From Spirochaeta sp. (GTDB taxonomy: Bacteria; Spirochaetota; Spirochaetia; Spirochaetales_E; Spirochaetaceae_B): 6,028 nucleotides of DNA. Location of the stretch: positions 1 through 6,028 of the forward strand of contig JAUUYD010000160.1 in the NCBI GenBank assembly GCA_030590585.1, read 5' to 3'. Position numbers and translations under genes: made by a program. Positions 1 through 6,011 of this stretch are shown here, piece after piece. The notes below the pieces were generated by a model, which saw only the letters and a list, made by a program, of their open reading frames with translations, did not search any database and was not told where the DNA came from. Positions within the stretch are counted from its first letter, which is position 1, and each line of letters starts with the position of its first letter.

Positions 1-251
1 ACTAGAGGAAAATTCTGAATCCACTTACGCTGTTCCATCAGCTTTTCAAAACCGCGATGCAGGTAACCCACATGTGTTTTGAGGTCAACAACTTCATCCC
101 CGGAAATTACAAGTTCCAGAGACATATTACCCGTAACACCGGGATGCTGAGGGCCCTGCCACACCTTCATGTAGCGCCCGCTCTCGAGGTTGAGTGTTTC
201 AACCCCTCCGGTATGAGCGGGGAATTTTTCGCGATCAGGCATACTTGTCAC
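1..251 (-). CDS. NuoD-like large (catalytic) subunit, N-terminal 83 codons only (EchE/MbhL/49 kDa family)
   Basis: The 3' part is missing at the window edge. The 83 residues present match the N-terminus of the complex I 49 kDa / group 4 hydrogenase large-subunit family: W-Q-G-P-Q-H-P-G-V-T-G (31-41), E-L-V-I-S-G-D-E-V-V-D (46-56), and T-H-V-G-Y-L-H-R-G-F-E-K-L-M-E (59-73) followed by W-I-Q-N-F-P-L (77-83). The G-P-Q-H-P and G-Y-L-H-x-G-F-E-K motifs are strong family marks and look closer to NuoD/Nqo4 than to a classic uptake hydrogenase. Where quinone-reducing enzymes read Q-H-P-S-T-H-G, this one reads Q-H-P-G-V-T-G, so the His that contacts quinone is Thr40. The sequence stops just before the place where hydrogenases carry the first C-x-x-C that binds nickel, so hydrogenase activity can be neither claimed nor excluded. 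The start chosen is GTG at 251 (GTGA overlap, GGAGG at 8 bases); ATG at 242 is the alternative. Confidence 0.9.
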   Translation of the reverse strand, partial: MTSMPDREKFPAHTGGVETLNLESGRYMKVWQGPQHPGVTGNMSLELVISGDEVVDLKTHVGYLHRGFEKLMEQRKWIQNFPL

Positions 252-793
252 AGATCGGCCCTCCCGGGATATTGAGTTTTCTTCATATGTTCCGCCGGAT
301 CGTTAGTTGTACGTCCCGACCTAGGATAGTAAGTTTCCTCTGAATATTTCCTTGTATCAAAATCACGTCTCATCGGCGGGGGGCCTTCCCAGCTTTCCAG
401 GGCAAAACTCTCATCAACGCCTGGAGAACCGGGGAAATCAATACCGAACATTTCATGTAATTCCTGCTGGTAAGTCGAGATGGCAGCCCAATGGTGATGC
501 ATGGACTCCATCACAGGGTTTTCCCGGTCAATTAATGTTTTTATTCCCAGATCGTGTTTTGTCTCATGGTTACGCAGCATGTAAATAAGTTCAAATTGAC
601 CTTCTTCTATATGATCAACGCAGGTAAGGAAGCTCAGATGAACATAACCTTGATGATCTCTCAGATATGCCACGGCATCAGGTACATCAATCTGCCCGCA
701 TTTCAGAAATGCAAGATCATCCCGTTGTTCCAGCAATTTCTCTACTTGGTATCTCTTTTGGAGTTCAGCCTGAAGGGTCTTAATATCGTTCAT
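248..793 (-). CDS. NuoC-like 30 kDa subunit (EchD/MbhK family)
   Basis: A 181-residue soluble protein of the complex I 30 kDa family, which carries no cofactor and clamps the NuoB/NuoD-like pair in the peripheral arm. The centre has the expected pattern: Y-V-H-L-S-F-L-T-C-V-D (50-60) with F-E-L-I-Y-M-L (67-73), the paired strands of the fold; then Y-Q-Q-E-L-H-E-M-F-G-I-D-F-P-G-S-P (108-124), matching the family signature E-R-E-x-x-D-x-F-G-I-x-F-x-G-H-P; then W-E-G-P-P-P-M-R-R-D-F (135-145), matching P-L-R-K-D-F. The family His in G-H-P is Ser here, and the loop from 125 to 133 is less basic than the usual L-R-R segment. The start is ATG at 793, backed by AAGGG 8 bases ahead; GTG at 802 would add V/M-V-D. 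It begins 11 bases after the NuoB-like stop, and its stop overlaps the likely GTG of the NuoD-like gene. In some relatives NuoC is fused to NuoD; here they are separate. Confidence 0.92.
   Translation of the reverse strand: MNDIKTLQAELQKRYQVEKLLEQRDDLAFLKCGQIDVPDAVAYLRDHQGYVHLSFLTCVDHIEEGQFELIYMLRNHETKHDLGIKTLIDRENPVMESMHHHWAAISTYQQELHEMFGIDFPGSPGVDESFALESWEGPPPMRRDFDTRKYSEETYYPRSGRTTNDPAEHMKKTQYPGRADL
260..264 (-). promoter_or_regulatory. Shine-Dalgarno site setting a GTG start for the NuoD-like gene
   Basis: GGAGG within the last codons of the NuoC-like gene is 8 bases ahead of a GTG (251-249) that overlaps the NuoC stop as GTGA. This repeats the layout at the start of the fused antiporter gene. 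It favours this GTG over the in-frame ATG at 242-240, which would have a 17-base spacing. Confidence 0.7.
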
Positions 794-801
794 ATCCACC
801 A

Positions 802-806
802 CCCTT
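802..806 (-). promoter_or_regulatory. Shine-Dalgarno site favouring the inner ATG of the NuoC-like gene
   Basis: AAGGG, beginning in the stop codon of the NuoB-like gene, lies 8 bases ahead of the ATG at 793-791. The two in-frame GTG codons just upstream (802-800 and 799-797) overlap or directly abut this site, so they are poor starts. Confidence 0.6.
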
Positions 807-1437
807 ACCAGTTGTAATCCGGCATATTCCAGTCCTTGATAATCTTCTTCTGGTTTGCTTTATACCAGTCGAAATTCCGCGCGTAATCGTTGGCACCTTC
901 CGCCTCTCCGTCCATAATTCTCTTTTGAAGTGTTTTAATCCCGGACAGCAGGGCTTCAGGACGGGGCATACATCCGGCAATATAAACGTCGACGGGAATA
1001 TAGTAATCAAGGCGATTGATGGTGTTGTATGAATCCCAGTACATTCCGCCGTTTACAGTACAGCTCCCCAGACCCAGGACAAATTTCGGTCCCTGCATCT
1101 GCTCATAACTGCGGACGATACGCTTCATGGTTTTCACCGATGCGTAGCCGCCGATAATGAATAAGCCGGACTGCCTGGGGGTTGGCCGGGGCTGTATTCC
1201 GAAACGGTACATATCGTAACGGCTTGTCATCAGCGGCCGGAGTTCGATGGCTCCGCAGCCGGTTCCGAATCCCAGTATCCACAGACTGTTGGCCCGGGCC
1301 CAACTCATAAAGTTCTCCCAGATACCTTTTACCGGCTCAGCTGCCTCGGGGCGTGCATCGCAGAAGTAGCCTCTGTCGGAAGCAGGTAAATCAAGGTTTG
1401 GAAGTACAGGTTTATCTGTTTTCGTTTTCGTCTTCAT
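805..1437 (-). CDS. NuoB-like small redox subunit (EchC/MbhJ family) with altered cluster motif
   Basis: A 210-residue soluble iron-sulfur protein of the NuoB / small-hydrogenase-subunit family, which holds the [4Fe-4S] cluster nearest the catalytic or quinone site and packs against the NuoD- and NuoH-like subunits. Recognisable: S-W-A-R-A-N-S-L-W (45-53), matching the N-W-G-R-K-N-S-I-W segment of E. coli NuoB; F-G-T-G-C-G-A-I-E (57-65); S-R-Y-D-M-Y-R-F-G (72-80); T-P-R-Q-S (86-90); G-S-C (124-126); P-V-D-V-Y-I-A-G-C-M-P-R-P-E-A (148-162). Cysteines are at 26, 61, 126 and 156. The canonical tandem Cys-Cys is Cys61-Gly62, so one of four expected cluster ligands is missing; Cys26 lies far upstream and is an uncertain substitute. 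The start is the ATG after a 16-base gap; AGGAG lies over the preceding stop at a long 13-base spacing. The frame is open further upstream to an ATG at 1557, but that stretch encodes unrelated residues inside the nuoH-like gene. The N-terminus is a short K-T-K-T-K-T run. Confidence 0.93.
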   Translation of the reverse strand: MKTKTKTDKPVLPNLDLPASDRGYFCDARPEAAEPVKGIWENFMSWARANSLWILGFGTGCGAIELRPLMTSRYDMYRFGIQPRPTPRQSGLFIIGGYASVKTMKRIVRSYEQMQGPKFVLGLGSCTVNGGMYWDSYNTINRLDYYIPVDVYIAGCMPRPEALLSGIKTLQKRIMDGEAEGANDYARNFDWYKANQKKIIKDWNMPDYNW

Positions 1438-1453
1438 CTTATCTCTATAGCTC

Positions 1454-2437
1454 CTATATCCTTGCCAGGATAAGACCGGCAAGTCCGATGAGTGTGGGTA
1501 CAAGGAGAAAAAACCGAATGGACTGATCCGTCCGGAACCGGGGGAACGAGACTCCAACGAATACGGTAATGAAATACAAAAGGAATGTTTTTACCACCAT
1601 GGTGATAACTCCTGAGGTAACTCCAAGCCATATGGGAACCATGGGTAGAATCGCATCAAAAATAGAATAAAGAGCACCTCCTGTTGCAGAGGCGCCTCCG
1701 AAGAATAAATTCACATACAGTATCAGCTTGGCGGCATTGAAAATAGCACGGTTTGTAATGAGCATGCCGAGCATGCTGCTCTGGTATTCTGTTGGGGGCC
1801 CGATGGGGATTTCCTGAGGTGCAATAACAACGCTGAAGGGATTATGCATCGACATACCCAGAAACGCGATTACCGCGGCAATTACGGCAAGTGGATTGGT
1901 AACCATCGTCCAATTGGCAATACCGCCCTGCTGAACCTGAACAATGGTTGTTATTGAGAGAGTGTTATGCTTCACAGCCAATGCCAGAACAGAGAGGATA
2001 AACGGCAGCTCGAAAGCCGACATCTGTGCCAGTCCCCGGCTGACGCCTATGGGGCTGTAGGGGTGTCCGGATTGCCCCGCTCCCAGGGCCATTCCCAACT
2101 GACCGAAAAAGATAAAATACATGACCAGAAGAAGGTCTCCGGAGAAACTGAAGTTTTCAAAAAGCGGTGCTCCAAAAACTGCCGGGATGAACAGGAATGT
2201 ACCCAATCCACCGGCGAGTCTGAAAACAGGCCCAAGAAAGAACATCACACCGTGATGAATGGAAGTCCTTCTGGCATTATTCTTGATGACATCAATGTAC
2301 GGCTGATAGACCGGTTGCCCTATCCGCCCCTGAACACGGGCTCTGATCCGGGCCATGCTGCCCATCAACAGAAATCCATAATTTATGAAAATGAAGACCG
2401 ACAGGGCGGCTGCCCCTATTTGACCCCAGATTGTCAT
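1454..2437 (-). CDS. NuoH-like membrane anchor subunit (EchB/MbhM/complex I subunit 1 family)
   Basis: A 327-residue membrane protein of the complex I subunit 1 family, which links the redox arm to the antiporter arm and, in complex I, forms the quinone chamber. Seen in order: a first helix (about 6-28); the cytoplasmic loop R-I-R-A-R-V-Q-G-R-I-G-Q-P (30-42) then Y-Q-P-Y-I-D-V-I-K (44-52), the counterpart of the NuoH Q-x-R-x-G-P...Q-P-x-A-D-x-x-K motif; S-P-I-G-V-S-R-G-L-A-Q-M-S-A-F-E-L-P (128-145) with Glu143; the loop P-Q-E-I-P-I-G-P-P-T-E-Y (207-218) with Glu209 and Glu217; and S-F-P-R-F-R-T-D-Q-S-I-R-F-F (297-310). Length is normal. The first loop starts A-R-I rather than the E-R-K of quinone-type NuoH, more like hydrogenase versions. 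The ATG overlaps the preceding TGA by 4 bases, with a G-rich GGGGG 7 bases ahead instead of a classic AGGAG. It directly follows the antiporter gene, as echB follows echA. Confidence 0.94.
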   Translation of the reverse strand: MTIWGQIGAAALSVFIFINYGFLLMGSMARIRARVQGRIGQPVYQPYIDVIKNNARRTSIHHGVMFFLGPVFRLAGGLGTFLFIPAVFGAPLFENFSFSGDLLLVMYFIFFGQLGMALGAGQSGHPYSPIGVSRGLAQMSAFELPFILSVLALAVKHNTLSITTIVQVQQGGIANWTMVTNPLAVIAAVIAFLGMSMHNPFSVVIAPQEIPIGPPTEYQSSMLGMLITNRAIFNAAKLILYVNLFFGGASATGGALYSIFDAILPMVPIWLGVTSGVITMVVKTFLLYFITVFVGVSFPRFRTDQSIRFFLLVPTLIGLAGLILARI

Positions 2438-5400
2438 GCGAAAACCCCCGCAAAAAGAGCCACAGCCATCGTAAAGAGAACGATGTGCAGGGCGTATGTC
2501 TGTCCGTTACCTGTGTATAAGCGGCGGAATGCTGATGAAACAGCAGTGACAGTTCCGGCACTGCCTTCCCAGAATTTTCTCCCTGTCGGTTTAATCAGAA
2601 AGCCCAGGGCCTTTCGGTAAGGAGCAAAGAAATTATGGGCGTAATGAGTGGTTTCCGGCCGATGAGGGCGCTCAGCGGCAAAAACAATATTAAACTGTTT
2701 AACTTTTCGAATTTTACCTCGAGAACCGATGAGCAGGGAAACCAGAGGAATCATAAAAACACCCATAGTGACATACATCACCCAGCTGCCGTTCCAATAT
2801 CCGAGAACACTCATAAGCGTGGAGCCCTCAAAGCCGATTGCTGCCGGCATCCACTCGCCGACAGCCGCAATAATAGGCTTGAGAATGAGGGATGGAAACG
2901 AACTTATGGCCATTAAAACAGCCATGAGTATTACCTGAGGCAGTATGAGCCAGAAAGGAGCTTCTTTGATTCCGGCAGAATCATCTTTTCTCTGTCCCAG
3001 AAAGATGGAATGAATTAGCCGGTAAAGATATAGAAAAGCAATCCCGCTGGCGAACATGACCATGGCGGCCTGTATCGGCCGGTCTCCTTGAATTAAAGCG
3101 GAATAAACAAGCCATTTACCTCCGAAACCTGAAAGAGGGGGTACACCGGAGAGGGCTATAATCGCCATCAGAACAGTGATGAAAGTGATAGGCATGGGCG
3201 CGATCAGCCCGCCCATTTTATACATCAGTCGAGTTTTTACTCTGTAAATTACACCGGTAACCGCAAGGAACAACATGGCTTTGAAGATAAAATGATTTAT
3301 GGAAAGATATATGGCGGTGGTCCATCCGAAGTGATCGAAGAGACTGAAGGCAAGAATGATATAACCCAGCTGACCAATGGAACTCCAGGCCAGAGTGTAT
3401 TTGATATCTTCCTGAAATACCGCAATAACAGTTGCAGCCAGAGCTGTCAGAGCACCAATCCATCCAAGAATAACGGATAAAAAGGCAAACGGACCGCTGT
3501 TGAAAGCCTGCAGCCACAATTCAGGGCCATCAAGTCCATACATGCCGGGTAGAACCCTGATACTGAAAATCATCATGGCCCATATTCCGGCTTTGCCTAT
3601 TACTGAGGAAAGGAGACTTGATGCATCATCATCAGCCTCAGCATAGGAGCCGGGTAACCATATATGGAGTCCCAGTGAGCCGCTCTTGGCAAGAAAGGCA
3701 ATGACAACAAGTATGGCTACTATTGCCGGTGCCAGTGTCATTCCGGTTCCAATCGACATGAGAACGGTCATCAGCAGATATCCGCCTCCCATTGCAAAGA
3801 GGATACCTGTTCTTGCCGGTCCTGCGGCCCTTCGCCCCTGAAGAACTATCAGTACGGCCCCAACGGACATCACTTCCCATCCAATAAATATTTCAAGAGG
3901 AGTTGTTGCGAGAATCACTGCTCCGAGGGAGAGTACCGTCATTAATGAAAAAGCCCAGTAACCCGGTCTTCGATCCTTTCTGTACAGCCCCGCAAACAGG
4001 TTCAGGGAACCGCCGCCTAGAAAAAGCATGGCAAAGATTTGATCGATACCTTCAGTTCGCGGCCATATCCACCATGCGGCGGCAGCAGTTATGGCGACTG
4101 CCAGCAGACCGCGGATTCTACCGGGAAGAAATGAGAAAATAAGCATAAAAAGGGCGGCAGCAAAAGGTGCCATGACTACGGGATTGAGAACTCCGGCCAT
4201 ATCAGCCCATAAAGCCGAGAGCCCCGCAAGTACCAGTCCGGGAACTAAAACCCAGAGGGCTTCCGCATTACTCATCAAACTGCCGGATTTAAGAGTCGGC
4301 GCATCGGTAAGAATATCCGGGCCGGATCTTTTTCCGACGACCAGACTGTCACCGTTGATAAGTTCAGCTCCACCATCGGCACATTCAGCCTTTGTTTTCC
4401 TGACAAGCCAGCTGAACATATAAGCTGCTTCAAAAAGTGATCCGAGGAAAAGCGCCGTCAAGATCCACCAGGCACCGCTGCTTATCAGCAGTTTCACCAG
4501 TTCCATCTTTGCAAAAAAGGAGGGAAAAGGGGGAAGTGCCATCAATGAAAGAACAAAGATTCCCGCAAGAGCGGAAGGGAGTATTCGATGAAGAGAGCCA
4601 TTACCACCCTCTTTTTTACTTCGGTCGGCAAGACCTGACATCCAGAACAATCCTGATTTGGCAAAGAGATGGGTTAATAAAAGACCGCCGACAATGAACC
4701 ATGCAGTACTTTCAGGGAGTCCGGCCTTCTGAACTGTAAACCAGGAAAAAATAACGAGTCCGATCTGCCCGGTGGATGAATATCCGAACATTCTCTTTTC
4801 ATCTTTCTGACGTATACCCATCAGGTTGGCAAAAAAGAAGGTGAGTATTCCGACTCCACCGAGAACAGCCCCGAGACGTTCGCCGAATAATGGACTTATT
4901 TTTGTGAATGCAATAAAAACGGCAGAAGCCTGGGCAGATGACAGTAATGCACCAATTCCGGAGGGAGCTTCCTGATAGGCATCCAGGGCCCATCCGTTAG
5001 CGGGAAACGGCTTCAGTTCGATAATCATGGAAATCGCCAGAATGAAGACAGCAGATGCTGCGGCTGCTCCTGACAGGTTTCCCGAAGCGGCAATCGCTGC
5101 CATACCATCAATATTGAGAGTACCTGTCAGTCTATATAGAAATATTGTACCTATCAGAAATAATACAGAAGATATTCCACCGGCAATCATGTACTTGAAT
5201 CCGGCCTGTAGAGAACGATCACCGCCTCGCCCGATAAGTCCGTAAACACCGATAGAGCTGATTTCCAGAAATACAAACAGATTGAACAAGTCACGGGTCA
5301 GTATCAGTCCCGTTATACCCAGAGCAAGAACAAGGTAGAGCATTCGATCGTACATACCGTCTTTTTCACGGCGTATCATATAGGCTGCGCCGATAAGGAG

Positions 5401-5664
5401 TACCAGGGATGAGGCGGTCCAAACAACAGCTTCCCCCAGACCGATTCTGAAATTTATGGAGAGCGGCGGTTTGAAACCGGCAGTTGTGACTTCGATATCG
5501 GCAGCGCCGTTTATCAGTTCCGCCAGAATACCGCCTGATATAATTAAAAGCAGTCCGAGAGCTGAGAGAAAGAACAGCTGGGCCAGCTTGACACCGGCCT
5601 TTTCAATCAGGGGCATGGTGAATGCAGTGCCCAGCAGCACTGCCAGGGCAATCAATGGATTCAC
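2434..5664 (-). CDS. Double antiporter-like subunit: two fused NuoL/M/N (MrpD)-type modules
   Basis: A 1076-residue polytopic membrane protein with two complete proton-conducting (Proton_antipo_M) modules in one chain, roughly twice the length of MrpD, NuoM or NuoN. Module 1 (about 1-420) keeps the ion-path residues: Glu134 in the L-F-V-F-L-E-I-S-S helix, Lys218 in E-L-K-P-F-P-A-N-G-W, Lys255, His332/Lys336 and Lys386. A polar linker follows (about 421-466). Module 2 (about 467-980) keeps Glu597 (I-G-W-E-V-M-S), Lys660 (A-K-S-G-S-L-G-L-H-I-W-L-P), Lys691, His791/Lys795 (I-N-H-F-I-F-K-A) and Lys850 (S-G-F-G-G-K). The tail (983-1076) has a soluble stretch and a last helix after L-Y-T-G-N-G-Q-T-Y-A-L (1049-1059), as in the large subunits of group 4 hydrogenases (MbhH, HyfB, EchA, CooM type). 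Both modules therefore look competent to move ions. The start is GTG with AAGGAG 8 bases ahead; the stop overlaps the next ATG (ATGA). Homology is certain; whether the ion is H+ or Na+ is unknown. CooM of CO-dependent hydrogenase is a known oversized relative. Confidence 0.93.
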   Translation of the reverse strand: MNPLIALAVLLGTAFTMPLIEKAGVKLAQLFFLSALGLLLIISGGILAELINGAADIEVTTAGFKPPLSINFRIGLGEAVVWTASSLVLLIGAAYMIRREKDGMYDRMLYLVLALGITGLILTRDLFNLFVFLEISSIGVYGLIGRGGDRSLQAGFKYMIAGGISSVLFLIGTIFLYRLTGTLNIDGMAAIAASGNLSGAAAASAVFILAISMIIELKPFPANGWALDAYQEAPSGIGALLSSAQASAVFIAFTKISPLFGERLGAVLGGVGILTFFFANLMGIRQKDEKRMFGYSSTGQIGLVIFSWFTVQKAGLPESTAWFIVGGLLLTHLFAKSGLFWMSGLADRSKKEGGNGSLHRILPSALAGIFVLSLMALPPFPSFFAKMELVKLLISSGAWWILTALFLGSLFEAAYMFSWLVRKTKAECADGGAELINGDSLVVGKRSGPDILTDAPTLKSGSLMSNAEALWVLVPGLVLAGLSALWADMAGVLNPVVMAPFAAALFMLIFSFLPGRIRGLLAVAITAAAAWWIWPRTEGIDQIFAMLFLGGGSLNLFAGLYRKDRRPGYWAFSLMTVLSLGAVILATTPLEIFIGWEVMSVGAVLIVLQGRRAAGPARTGILFAMGGGYLLMTVLMSIGTGMTLAPAIVAILVVIAFLAKSGSLGLHIWLPGSYAEADDDASSLLSSVIGKAGIWAMMIFSIRVLPGMYGLDGPELWLQAFNSGPFAFLSVILGWIGALTALAATVIAVFQEDIKYTLAWSSIGQLGYIILAFSLFDHFGWTTAIYLSINHFIFKAMLFLAVTGVIYRVKTRLMYKMGGLIAPMPITFITVLMAIIALSGVPPLSGFGGKWLVYSALIQGDRPIQAAMVMFASGIAFLYLYRLIHSIFLGQRKDDSAGIKEAPFWLILPQVILMAVLMAISSFPSLILKPIIAAVGEWMPAAIGFEGSTLMSVLGYWNGSWVMYVTMGVFMIPLVSLLIGSRGKIRKVKQFNIVFAAERPHRPETTHYAHNFFAPYRKALGFLIKPTGRKFWEGSAGTVTAVSSAFRRLYTGNGQTYALHIVLFTMAVALFAGVFA

Positions 5665-6011
5665 AGAGCATTCTCCTTGAAATCGTCAATAACTGCTGTT
5701 CCCCGTGAAGTGTAGAGTCTCACCGCATAGGCCAGCATCAGAGCCGTTACAGCCAACCCGATAACAATAGCCGTCAGTACAAGAGCAGAGGGAACAGGGT
5801 CAACAAATTGAGTACCTGATGTCACTGAAGAATCGAGTATCGGTGCGGTAGCCCCATTACGATAACCCAGACCTACAATGATGATATGAGTTCCCGTATC
5901 CATGATGGAAAATCCGAGAATCATCTTGATGAGATTACGTCTTGTGAGTAAGCCCCAGAGTCCGATTAGAACCAGTAAGGCGCCTGTGGATATGACAAGT
6001 GTAATAATCAT
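5661..6011 (-). CDS. mrpC: MrpC/MnhC-type (NuoK-like) cation antiporter subunit
   Basis: A 116-residue, three-helix membrane protein homologous to the C subunit of Mrp Na+/H+ antiporters and to NuoK of complex I. It sits beside the large antiporter subunits and helps form the ion path. Visible family marks are an N-terminal hydrophobic helix (about 3-22), the R-R-N-L-I-K-M-I-L-G-F segment at 24-34 opening helix 2 with Asp38 inside it, the A-P-I loop at 56-58, and D-P-V-P-S-A-L-V-L-T-A-I-V-I-G at 71-85 opening helix 3, the most typical MrpC/NuoK signature. Length matches MrpC (about 110-125). The loop at 59-69 is rich in Ser and Thr. The ATG overlaps the upstream stop (ATGA); only a weak GAGAGA lies 7 bases before it, so translation is probably coupled. 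The 3' end carries the AAGGAG for the next gene. The family is clear; whether it belongs to a free Mrp antiporter or to a redox complex is inferred from the genes that follow, which favour the latter. Confidence 0.88.
   Translation of the reverse strand: MIITLVISTGALLVLIGLWGLLTRRNLIKMILGFSIMDTGTHIIIVGLGYRNGATAPILDSSVTSGTQFVDPVPSALVLTAIVIGLAVTALMLAYAVRLYTSRGTAVIDDFKENAL
5673..5678 (-). promoter_or_regulatory. Shine-Dalgarno site setting a GTG start for the fused antiporter gene
   Basis: A perfect AAGGAG inside the last codons of the mrpC-like gene lies 8 bases before a GTG (5664-5662) that overlaps the mrpC TGA as GTGA. No ATG start at this junction is as well placed, so the site decides the start. 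Confidence 0.8.

What the first reader, a model, noticed from the sequence alone, without database searches (positions are those of the whole stretch)
1249..1266. NuoB-like subunit has Cys-Gly where the tandem Cys-Cys cluster motif is expected
Residues 57-65 (F-G-T-G-C-G-A-I-E) line up without gaps with E. coli NuoB F-G-L-S-C-C-Y-V-E, and the flanking S-W-A-R-A-N-S-L-W supports the register. The first Cys is kept (Cys61) and the second is Gly62, encoded GGA, which is more than one base away from a Cys codon and so unlikely to be a single read error. G-S-C (Cys126) and A-G-C (Cys156) are kept. The C-x-x-C variant of Ech/Mbh hydrogenases is absent too. The cluster that serves as N2 or proximal cluster would have three protein ligands, an unusual fourth ligand, or altered nuclearity or potential. 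Neighbouring family residues differ as well: P-R-Q-S-G for P-R-Q-A-D, and G-C-M-P for G-C-P-P.
Basis: partly seen in the sequence, partly recalled or inferred. Interest (0 to 1): 0.72.

Follow-up and report, generated by a model that had tools for sequence, protein, structure and literature searches.

The report
Open-cluster subunit of bacterial MBS complex
The missing cysteine is real and is shared by the close relatives examined; it is the known mark of sulfur-reducing cousins of respiratory complex I, where an iron-sulfur cluster is left with one open iron, so the motif itself is not new, although the bacterial complex around it seems to have extra parts that deserve a test.

Summary
In detail: in the NuoB-like gene (window 805-1437, minus strand) Cys61 is followed by Gly62 (GGA, 1252-1254). 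It is neither error nor decay: Gly62 is in 120 of 120 proteins and 80 of 80 loci, written with all four Gly codons, under strong purifying selection. Nor is it new. The closest solved relative is MbsJ of Pyrococcus furiosus membrane-bound sulfane reductase (MBS; 6u8y_J, E 6.8e-66), with the same Cys-Gly; its proximal [4Fe-4S] cluster has three Cys ligands and an open iron proposed to cleave polysulfide (PMC7684303). Most neighbouring genes, the missing quinone His and a tree agree; the NuoC-like gene does not discriminate. Differences from P. furiosus: the spare Cys25 is Gly too (200 of 200); the two antiporter subunits are fused; and in relatives the MbsN-like subunit is fused to an NfnB/GltD-like NAD(P)H-FAD module (60 of 66 loci with a hit), suggesting NAD(P)H-linked sulfane reduction. 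That module lies outside the window, and no activity was tested.

The parts
805..1437 (-). MbsJ/MbxJ-like (NuoB-like) small subunit, 210 aa, start ATG at 1435-1437, stop at 805-807
   Evidence: best PDB match 6u8y_J E 6.8e-66
1255..1257 (-). Cys61, inferred cluster ligand (MbsJ C28 equivalent)
1252..1254 (-). Gly62 (GGA), where complex I has the second Cys; MbsJ has Gly too
1264..1266 (-). Gly58, at the place of non-ligand MbsJ C25
1060..1062 (-). Cys126, inferred cluster ligand (MbsJ C93 equivalent)
970..972 (-). Cys156, inferred cluster ligand (MbsJ C123 equivalent), followed by Met157 (GCMP)
1360..1362 (-). Cys26, considered and rejected as a regular fourth ligand
   Evidence: not Cys in 27 of 200 relatives
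248..802 (-). NuoC/MbsK-like 30 kDa subunit
   Evidence: matches 6u8y_K and mitochondrial complex I about equally
1..251 (-). first 83 aa of MbsL/NuoD-like large subunit; Thr40 (132-134) stands where Nqo4 has quinone-binding His38
1454..2437 (-). MbsM/NuoH-like membrane anchor
   Evidence: best PDB match 6u8y_M E 1.8e-39
2434..5664 (-). fused double antiporter subunit (MbsH + MbsH' like), 1076 aa
   Evidence: best PDB matches 6u8y_H and 6u8y_X
5661..6011 (-). MnhC-like small antiporter subunit

Best explanation
The protein is the J subunit of a bacterial MBS/MBX-type respiratory complex. Its Cys61, Cys126 and Cys156 hold three irons of the proximal [4Fe-4S] cluster; Gly62 and Gly58 leave the fourth iron without a Cys. 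The open iron faces the chamber between subunits J, L and M and is where a sulfane (polysulfide) substrate is bound and cleaved; the energy drives ion pumping by the H/H' antiporter arm. Shown here: the sequence, its conservation, its family and gene neighbourhood, and loss of the quinone His. Inferred from P. furiosus MBS: three-ligand geometry, open iron, sulfane chemistry, pumping. Inferred from relatives only: electrons enter through an MbsN-like subunit fused to an NfnB/GltD-like FAD and NAD(P)H module, so the donor may be NAD(P)H, alone or with ferredoxin.
For: Best sequence match 6u8y_J at 225 bits against 137 for the best complex I-type chain and 85 for MbhJ; best fold match 6u8y_J, E 9.6e-16, next 2.7e-11 (model pLDDT 74). 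MbsJ has the same Cys-Gly, and its cluster was seen with three Cys; the C25A mutant kept activity, and ferricyanide removal of the open iron lost about 98% of activity, restored by iron. All 200 relatives counted share Cys61-Gly62 with Gly58. Tree of 35 rows: window, 27 loci, MbsJ and a second MBX copy fall together against complex I-like and Ech-like rows, 99/95, with a long-branch warning. Controls from relatives' genomes: two complex I-like copies read CC, an Ech-like copy reads CxxC. Large subunit: quinone His38 place is Thr and Tyr87 place is Val in 65 of 65 loci; only the Thr lies in the window. Antiporter and anchor subunits match MBS best, as does the full large subunit of L001. N-NfnB fusion in 60 of 66 loci with a hit.
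Against: No activity, EPR or structure for any protein of this clade. MbsJ keeps a Cys at position 25, absent here, so the geometry is not proven equal. The large-subunit fragment in the window scores higher with Nqo4 of complex I (50 bits) than with 6u8y_L (37 bits), and the NuoC-like subunit does not separate MBS from complex I. The MbsL Cys385 place is Tyr in 42 of 65 loci (not catalytic in P. furiosus). The branch that joins window and MbsJ against complex I was flagged as a possible long-branch join. The NAD(P)H module has no counterpart in P. furiosus MbsN as solved (208 residues), so the physiological reaction may differ. Some relatives are in organisms not known to me as sulfur respirers (Prolixibacter).
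Confidence: 0.72

Rival explanations
1. The fourth iron is held by a Cys of the large subunit: relatives have an extra Cys (L001 numbering Cys85, motif FPLVCRICVPEP) three residues before the Cys that matches MbsL C85, so the cluster is complete but bridged between subunits.
For: Cys in 60 of 65 loci and in 3 more shifted by one residue; also in the second MBX copy; Leu in P. furiosus MbsL. From recall, the neighbouring Arg (Nqo4 R84 place) lies near N2.
Against: Two of 65 have neither (L057 Asn, L078 Val); P. furiosus works without it; MbsL C85 itself is about 12 A from the cluster. The residue lies beyond the window end, and no distance could be measured.
Confidence: 0.13
2. The complex does not reduce sulfur; it couples ferredoxin and NAD(P)H through the fused NfnB-like module to ion pumping, and the altered cluster is only an electron relay or serves another acceptor.
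For: NfnB/GltD-like module fused in relatives; one paper cites P. furiosus Mbx as a ferredoxin:NADP oxidoreductase.
Against: Later work assigned sulfane reduction to the P. furiosus complex, and mbxA of Thermotoga maritima rose 4.36-fold with sulfur. An all-Cys cluster would be expected if only a relay were needed (my inference).
Confidence: 0.14
3. It is a quinone-reducing complex I with an altered N2 cluster.
For: Generic annotation as NADH-quinone oxidoreductase subunit B, passing of two NCBIfam NuoB cut-offs, and a better score of the short large-subunit fragment with Nqo4 than with MbsL.
Against: MBS chains match best for J, the antiporter, the anchor and the full L of L001; quinone His38 and Tyr87 replaced; separate branch in the tree; in two genomes a further copy reads CC.
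Confidence: 0.02
4. Sequencing error or gene decay.
For: None found.
Against: Gly62 in 200 of 200 relatives, all four Gly codons, dN/dS about 0.02 against L001 and 0.03 against L002.
Confidence: 0.005

Closest known systems
P. furiosus MBS (membrane-bound sulfane reductase, PDB 6u8y), subunit MbsJ
   Same: Cys-Gly motif, GCMP motif, three Cys that align with the solved ligands, gene partners like K, L, M and H/H', absent quinone residues
   Different: C25 of MbsJ is Gly here; longer N-terminus with Cys26; H and H' fused; in relatives MbsN fused to an NfnB/GltD-like module and an extra Cys in L
Bacterial MBX/MBS (Thermotoga maritima; strain 3DAC; putative Mrp-Mbx of the Riftia symbiont)
   Same: named in print as bacterial homologues with a proposed role in sulfur reduction (passages)
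   Different: their sequences were not compared here; the passages seen do not say whether they carry the N-NfnB fusion
Complex I NuoB/Nqo6
   Same: fold and three of four cluster Cys
   Different: tandem CC in complex I; quinone-binding His38 and Tyr87 of Nqo4 lost here
Nfn transhydrogenase large subunit (NfnB/NfnL) and GltD
   Same: C-terminal part of the N subunit in relatives (5jca_L E 5.5e-82)
   Different: fused behind an MbsN-like domain; I made no search for an NfnA partner; the gene after N in L001 is rubrerythrin-like

Membership tests
MBS/MBX | J subunit with Cys-Gly and three cluster Cys | tested here: met
MBS/MBX | J sequence groups with MbsJ against complex I and hydrogenase | tested here: met
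   branch 99/95 but with a long-branch warning
MBS/MBX | two antiporter subunits H and H' plus Mrp-type small subunits | tested here: met
   H and H' fused in one chain; of the small subunits only the MnhC-like one lies in the window
MBS/MBX | large subunit without the NiFe ligand set and without quinone His38/Tyr87 | tested here: met
   His38 place is Thr in the window and in 65 of 65 loci, Tyr87 place Val in 65 of 65; at the two places where MbsL keeps Cys, Cys in 44 and 23 of 65. Only the His38 place lies in the window
MBS/MBX | spare Cys25 in J | tested here: not met
   Gly in 200 of 200; not essential in P. furiosus, so I do not count it as defining
MBS/MBX | MbsN with two [4Fe-4S] clusters as electron entry | tested here: inconclusive
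   not in the window; in relatives present but fused to an NfnB-like module
MBS/MBX | sulfane reductase activity with an open iron | not testable with these tools
   needs purified complex
Complex I (Nuo) | tandem Cys-Cys at N2 | tested here: not met
Complex I (Nuo) | quinone-binding His38 in NuoD | tested here: not met
   Thr40 of the partial large subunit
Mbh/Ech hydrogenase | CxxC in the small subunit | tested here: not met
   Gly58 instead of Cys; Ech-like control has CxxC
Nfn bifurcating transhydrogenase | NfnA partner with [2Fe-2S] and second FAD | not tested
   no search for NfnA was made

The most novel reading that the evidence does not exclude
This clade is an MBS variant in which the ferredoxin-side subunit has become an NAD(P)H-FAD-FeS arm of Nfn type, so that NAD(P)H, possibly together with ferredoxin by flavin-based confurcation, feeds an open three-Cys cluster that reduces sulfane sulfur and drives ion pumping; fused genes were seen in loci whose record titles span eight bacterial phyla. 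The extra Cys of subunit L may act as a switchable ligand of the open iron.
Probability: 0.3. Interest if true: 0.62.

Novelty: new member of a known kind. Interest (0 to 1): 0.33.

Why it matters
It explains a puzzling motif and corrects a misleading annotation (NADH-quinone oxidoreductase subunit B) that many listed relatives carry. It also gives natural support to a mutant result in P. furiosus: this clade lives without the Cys25 that was shown not to matter. If the NAD(P)H module in relatives works as its domains suggest, there is a bacterial pump that would link NAD(P)H to sulfane sulfur, testable in cultured strains that carry it, such as Prolixibacter (L069).

Tried and rejected
Sequencing error or decay: rejected. 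Cys26 as fourth ligand: rejected as a rule, since 27 of 200 relatives have Ser (19), Ala (6), Glu (1) or Leu (1) there (2 of 120 proteins and 25 of 80 loci); the alignment there is less sure in rows with short N-termini. CxxC hydrogenase reading: rejected. Complex I reading: rejected. The AlphaFold model returned no coordinates, so no Cys-Cys distance was measured; residues 1-12 and 127-131 have pLDDT under 50. Paper searches that could have shown the N-NfnB fusion in MBX listed no title that I recognised as describing it; only listings and the passages named in the report were seen, one earlier MBS paper was not held, and most subscription papers are not in the library, so I make no claim that it is unpublished. 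I made no attempt to fetch Thermotoga maritima MBX sequences by name; the tools used here list organisms only as they come up in hits.

Full report
OBSERVATION. The window carries, all on the minus strand, a gene run reading from high to low coordinates: MnhC-like (5661-6011), a 1076-aa double antiporter subunit (2434-5664), NuoH-like anchor (1454-2437), the NuoB-like subunit (805-1437), NuoC-like (248-802) and the first 83 residues of a NuoD-like subunit (1-251). In the NuoB-like protein Cys61 (1255-1257) is followed by Gly62, codon GGA (1252-1254); Cys126 and Cys156 are present and position 58 is Gly.

NOT AN ERROR. Among the best 120 of 2554 protein hits and the best 80 of 569 loci position 62 is Gly in 120 of 120 and 80 of 80, position 58 is Gly in the same 200, and Cys61, Cys126, Cys156 and Met157 are also 200 of 200. 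The two sets may overlap. The 80 loci use all four Gly codons at 62 (GGA 25, GGT 23, GGC 20, GGG 12). Against L001 the gene has dN 0.035 and dS 1.49, against L002 dN 0.042 and dS 1.30. The motif is fixed in what was examined and under selection.

WHAT IT IS. The best solved relative is chain J of the P. furiosus membrane-bound sulfane reductase, 6u8y, E 6.8e-66 and 225 bits, ahead of complex I-type chains (best 137 bits) and MbhJ (85 bits). The alignment pairs window FGTGCGAIE with FCTGCGGIE of MbsJ. The anchor matches 6u8y_M (E 1.8e-39 against 1.7e-14 for the next), the antiporter matches 6u8y_H and 6u8y_X first, and the full large subunit of the close relative L001 matches 6u8y_L first (E 1.1e-98 against 1e-65). 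Against this reading, the short large-subunit fragment in the window scores higher with Nqo4 (50 bits) than with 6u8y_L (37 bits, eleventh row), and the NuoC-like subunit matches mitochondrial complex I and 6u8y_K about equally. An AlphaFold2 model of the J protein (mean pLDDT 74.1) has 6u8y_J as its best fold match (E 9.6e-16; next, human complex I, 2.7e-11).

In a 35-row tree (window, 27 of the 80 loci, MbsJ, two NdhK chains and four proteins from relatives' genomes) the window, the loci, MbsJ and a second MBX copy stand together against complex I-like and Ech-like rows with support 99/95; the loci clade itself has only 79/74, and the tool warns that long branches meet at these joins, which may be false whatever their support. 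Five genomes of relatives were searched; their further copies give natural controls: two complex I-like copies (so called because they fall with NdhK, 93/70) read TSCCAIE and LACCAVE, an Ech-like copy, whose neighbouring large subunit reads RICGIC, reads GSCNNCDIE, and the second MBX copy in the genome of L001 reads YCTGCGAVE, which keeps the spare Cys.

HOW IT WORKS IN THE KNOWN RELATIVE. In PMC7684303 (abstract, passages, and sections 10 and 11 read) the proximal cluster of MBS is held by only C28, C93 and C123 of MbsJ; C25 is too far to bind; C25A keeps comparable activity; ferricyanide, which removes the non-Cys iron, removes about 98% of activity and iron restores it. The authors propose that the open iron binds and cleaves polysulfide. 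The three ligands align with Cys61, Cys126 and Cys156 here. That the present cluster is built alike is inference from alignment.

QUINONE AND NICKEL SITES. In the large subunit the place of Nqo4 His38 is Thr in the window (Thr40 of the fragment) and in 65 of 65 loci; the place of Tyr87 is Val in 65 of 65; the MbsL C85 place is Cys in 44, Ala in 19, Thr in 2; the MbsL C385 place is Tyr in 42 and Cys in 23. The other 15 of the 80 loci had no large-subunit hit (8) or a gene cut at its 3' end (7) and were left out. So the usual quinone residues are absent, and at most part of the nickel ligand set remains.

POSSIBLE FOURTH LIGANDS. Cys26 is Cys in 118 of 120 proteins but in only 55 of 80 loci; 27 of 200 have another residue, so it is not a required ligand. 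In L, a Cys three residues before the MbsL C85 place is present in 60 of 65 loci, and one residue earlier in 3 more; it is Leu in MbsL. The two remaining loci, L057 and L078, have Asn and Val. That the neighbouring Arg lies near the cluster is recalled from complex I work and comes from no call. The distance could not be measured; this stays open.

A DIFFERENCE THAT MAY MATTER. Beyond the window, in relatives, the gene after the large subunit is about 600 aa long. In L001 its residues 11-128 match MbsN (6u8y_N, E 2.6e-21) and residues from about 152 to 595 match Nfn alpha/large subunits (5jca_L E 5.5e-82) and related GltD-like domains (4ylf_B E 1e-82) (Pfam Fer4_20 and Pyr_redox_2). The match spans the whole fusion in 60 of 66 loci with a hit; of the other six, four are cut by the contig end, in L022 the best hit stops half way, and in L010 the hit is a separate gene away from the cluster; the 14 loci without a hit end before this gene. 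In 8 of the 60 the aligned stretch holds a stop sign; I did not follow these up one by one. In 39 of the 60 a YRR motif follows the second nucleotide-binding glycines, in 21 it does not; that YRR marks NADPH is recalled, not tested. A second search with the N subunit of the second MBX copy (best 120 of 7827 hits listed, candidates capped at 8000) lists long fused proteins whose source names include spirochaetes, Halanaerobiales, Bacillota and Bacteroidales; their gene neighbours were not seen. The window organism's own N gene was not seen; L001, with 93% identity in J, is the nearest proxy.

WHAT IS KNOWN. T. maritima MBX is described as a homologue of MBS with mbxA raised 4.36-fold by sulfur (PMC9431562, passages); a bacterial MBS is described in strain 3DAC (PMC10356935, passages); a putative Mrp-Mbx complex is named in the Riftia symbiont (PMC11636981, passages); an older assignment of P. 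furiosus Mbx as ferredoxin:NADP oxidoreductase is cited in PMC6349859 (passages). PMC12361115 (passages) reports Nuo subunits mostly lacking in Spirochaetota, which fits an MBX rather than complex I in the spirochaete relatives. PMC6405883 and PMC6085437 (passages) describe Nfn fusions and paralogues, but the passages seen do not mention a fusion with an MbsN-like domain. PMC11129491 (passages) gave nothing useful.

VERDICT. The finding is a correct observation of a family signature already explained by a solved relative. The J subunit is a member of the MBS/MBX kind in sequence; its function is by analogy. The bacterial clade has features not present in P. furiosus MBS, of which the NAD(P)H module and the Cys in L are the ones worth testing.

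Noticed in passing
window 2434-5664 (-): The N-terminal antiporter half lacks the central Lys of MbsH K250 (Ser here; Thr 24, Ala 21, Ser 6, Gly 3, Val 1 in 55 sequences with the window), while the C-terminal half has Lys in 55 of 55. One of the two channels may work differently. The MbsH H330 place fell on a gap in the N-half alignment and could not be judged.
   Followed up: partly
window 2434-5664 (-): Fusion of the two antiporter subunits looks like the rule in this clade: 54 complete frames of 1041-1210 aa (stop to stop) in related loci; 21 more loci have a frame cut by the contig end and 5 have no hit.
   Followed up: yes
L001:12347-14137, L012:12474-14252, L069:12313-14106: MbsN-like domain fused to an NfnB/GltD-like NAD(P)H-FAD module directly after the large subunit.
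   Followed up: partly
L086 and L095 (genome of L001): A second MBX copy with the spare Cys kept (YCTGCGAVE) and a 748-residue open frame for its own N-NfnB fusion.
   Followed up: partly
L001:11176-12354: Extra Cys85 in the large subunit, Cys in 60 of 65 loci, absent from P. furiosus MbsL.
   Followed up: partly
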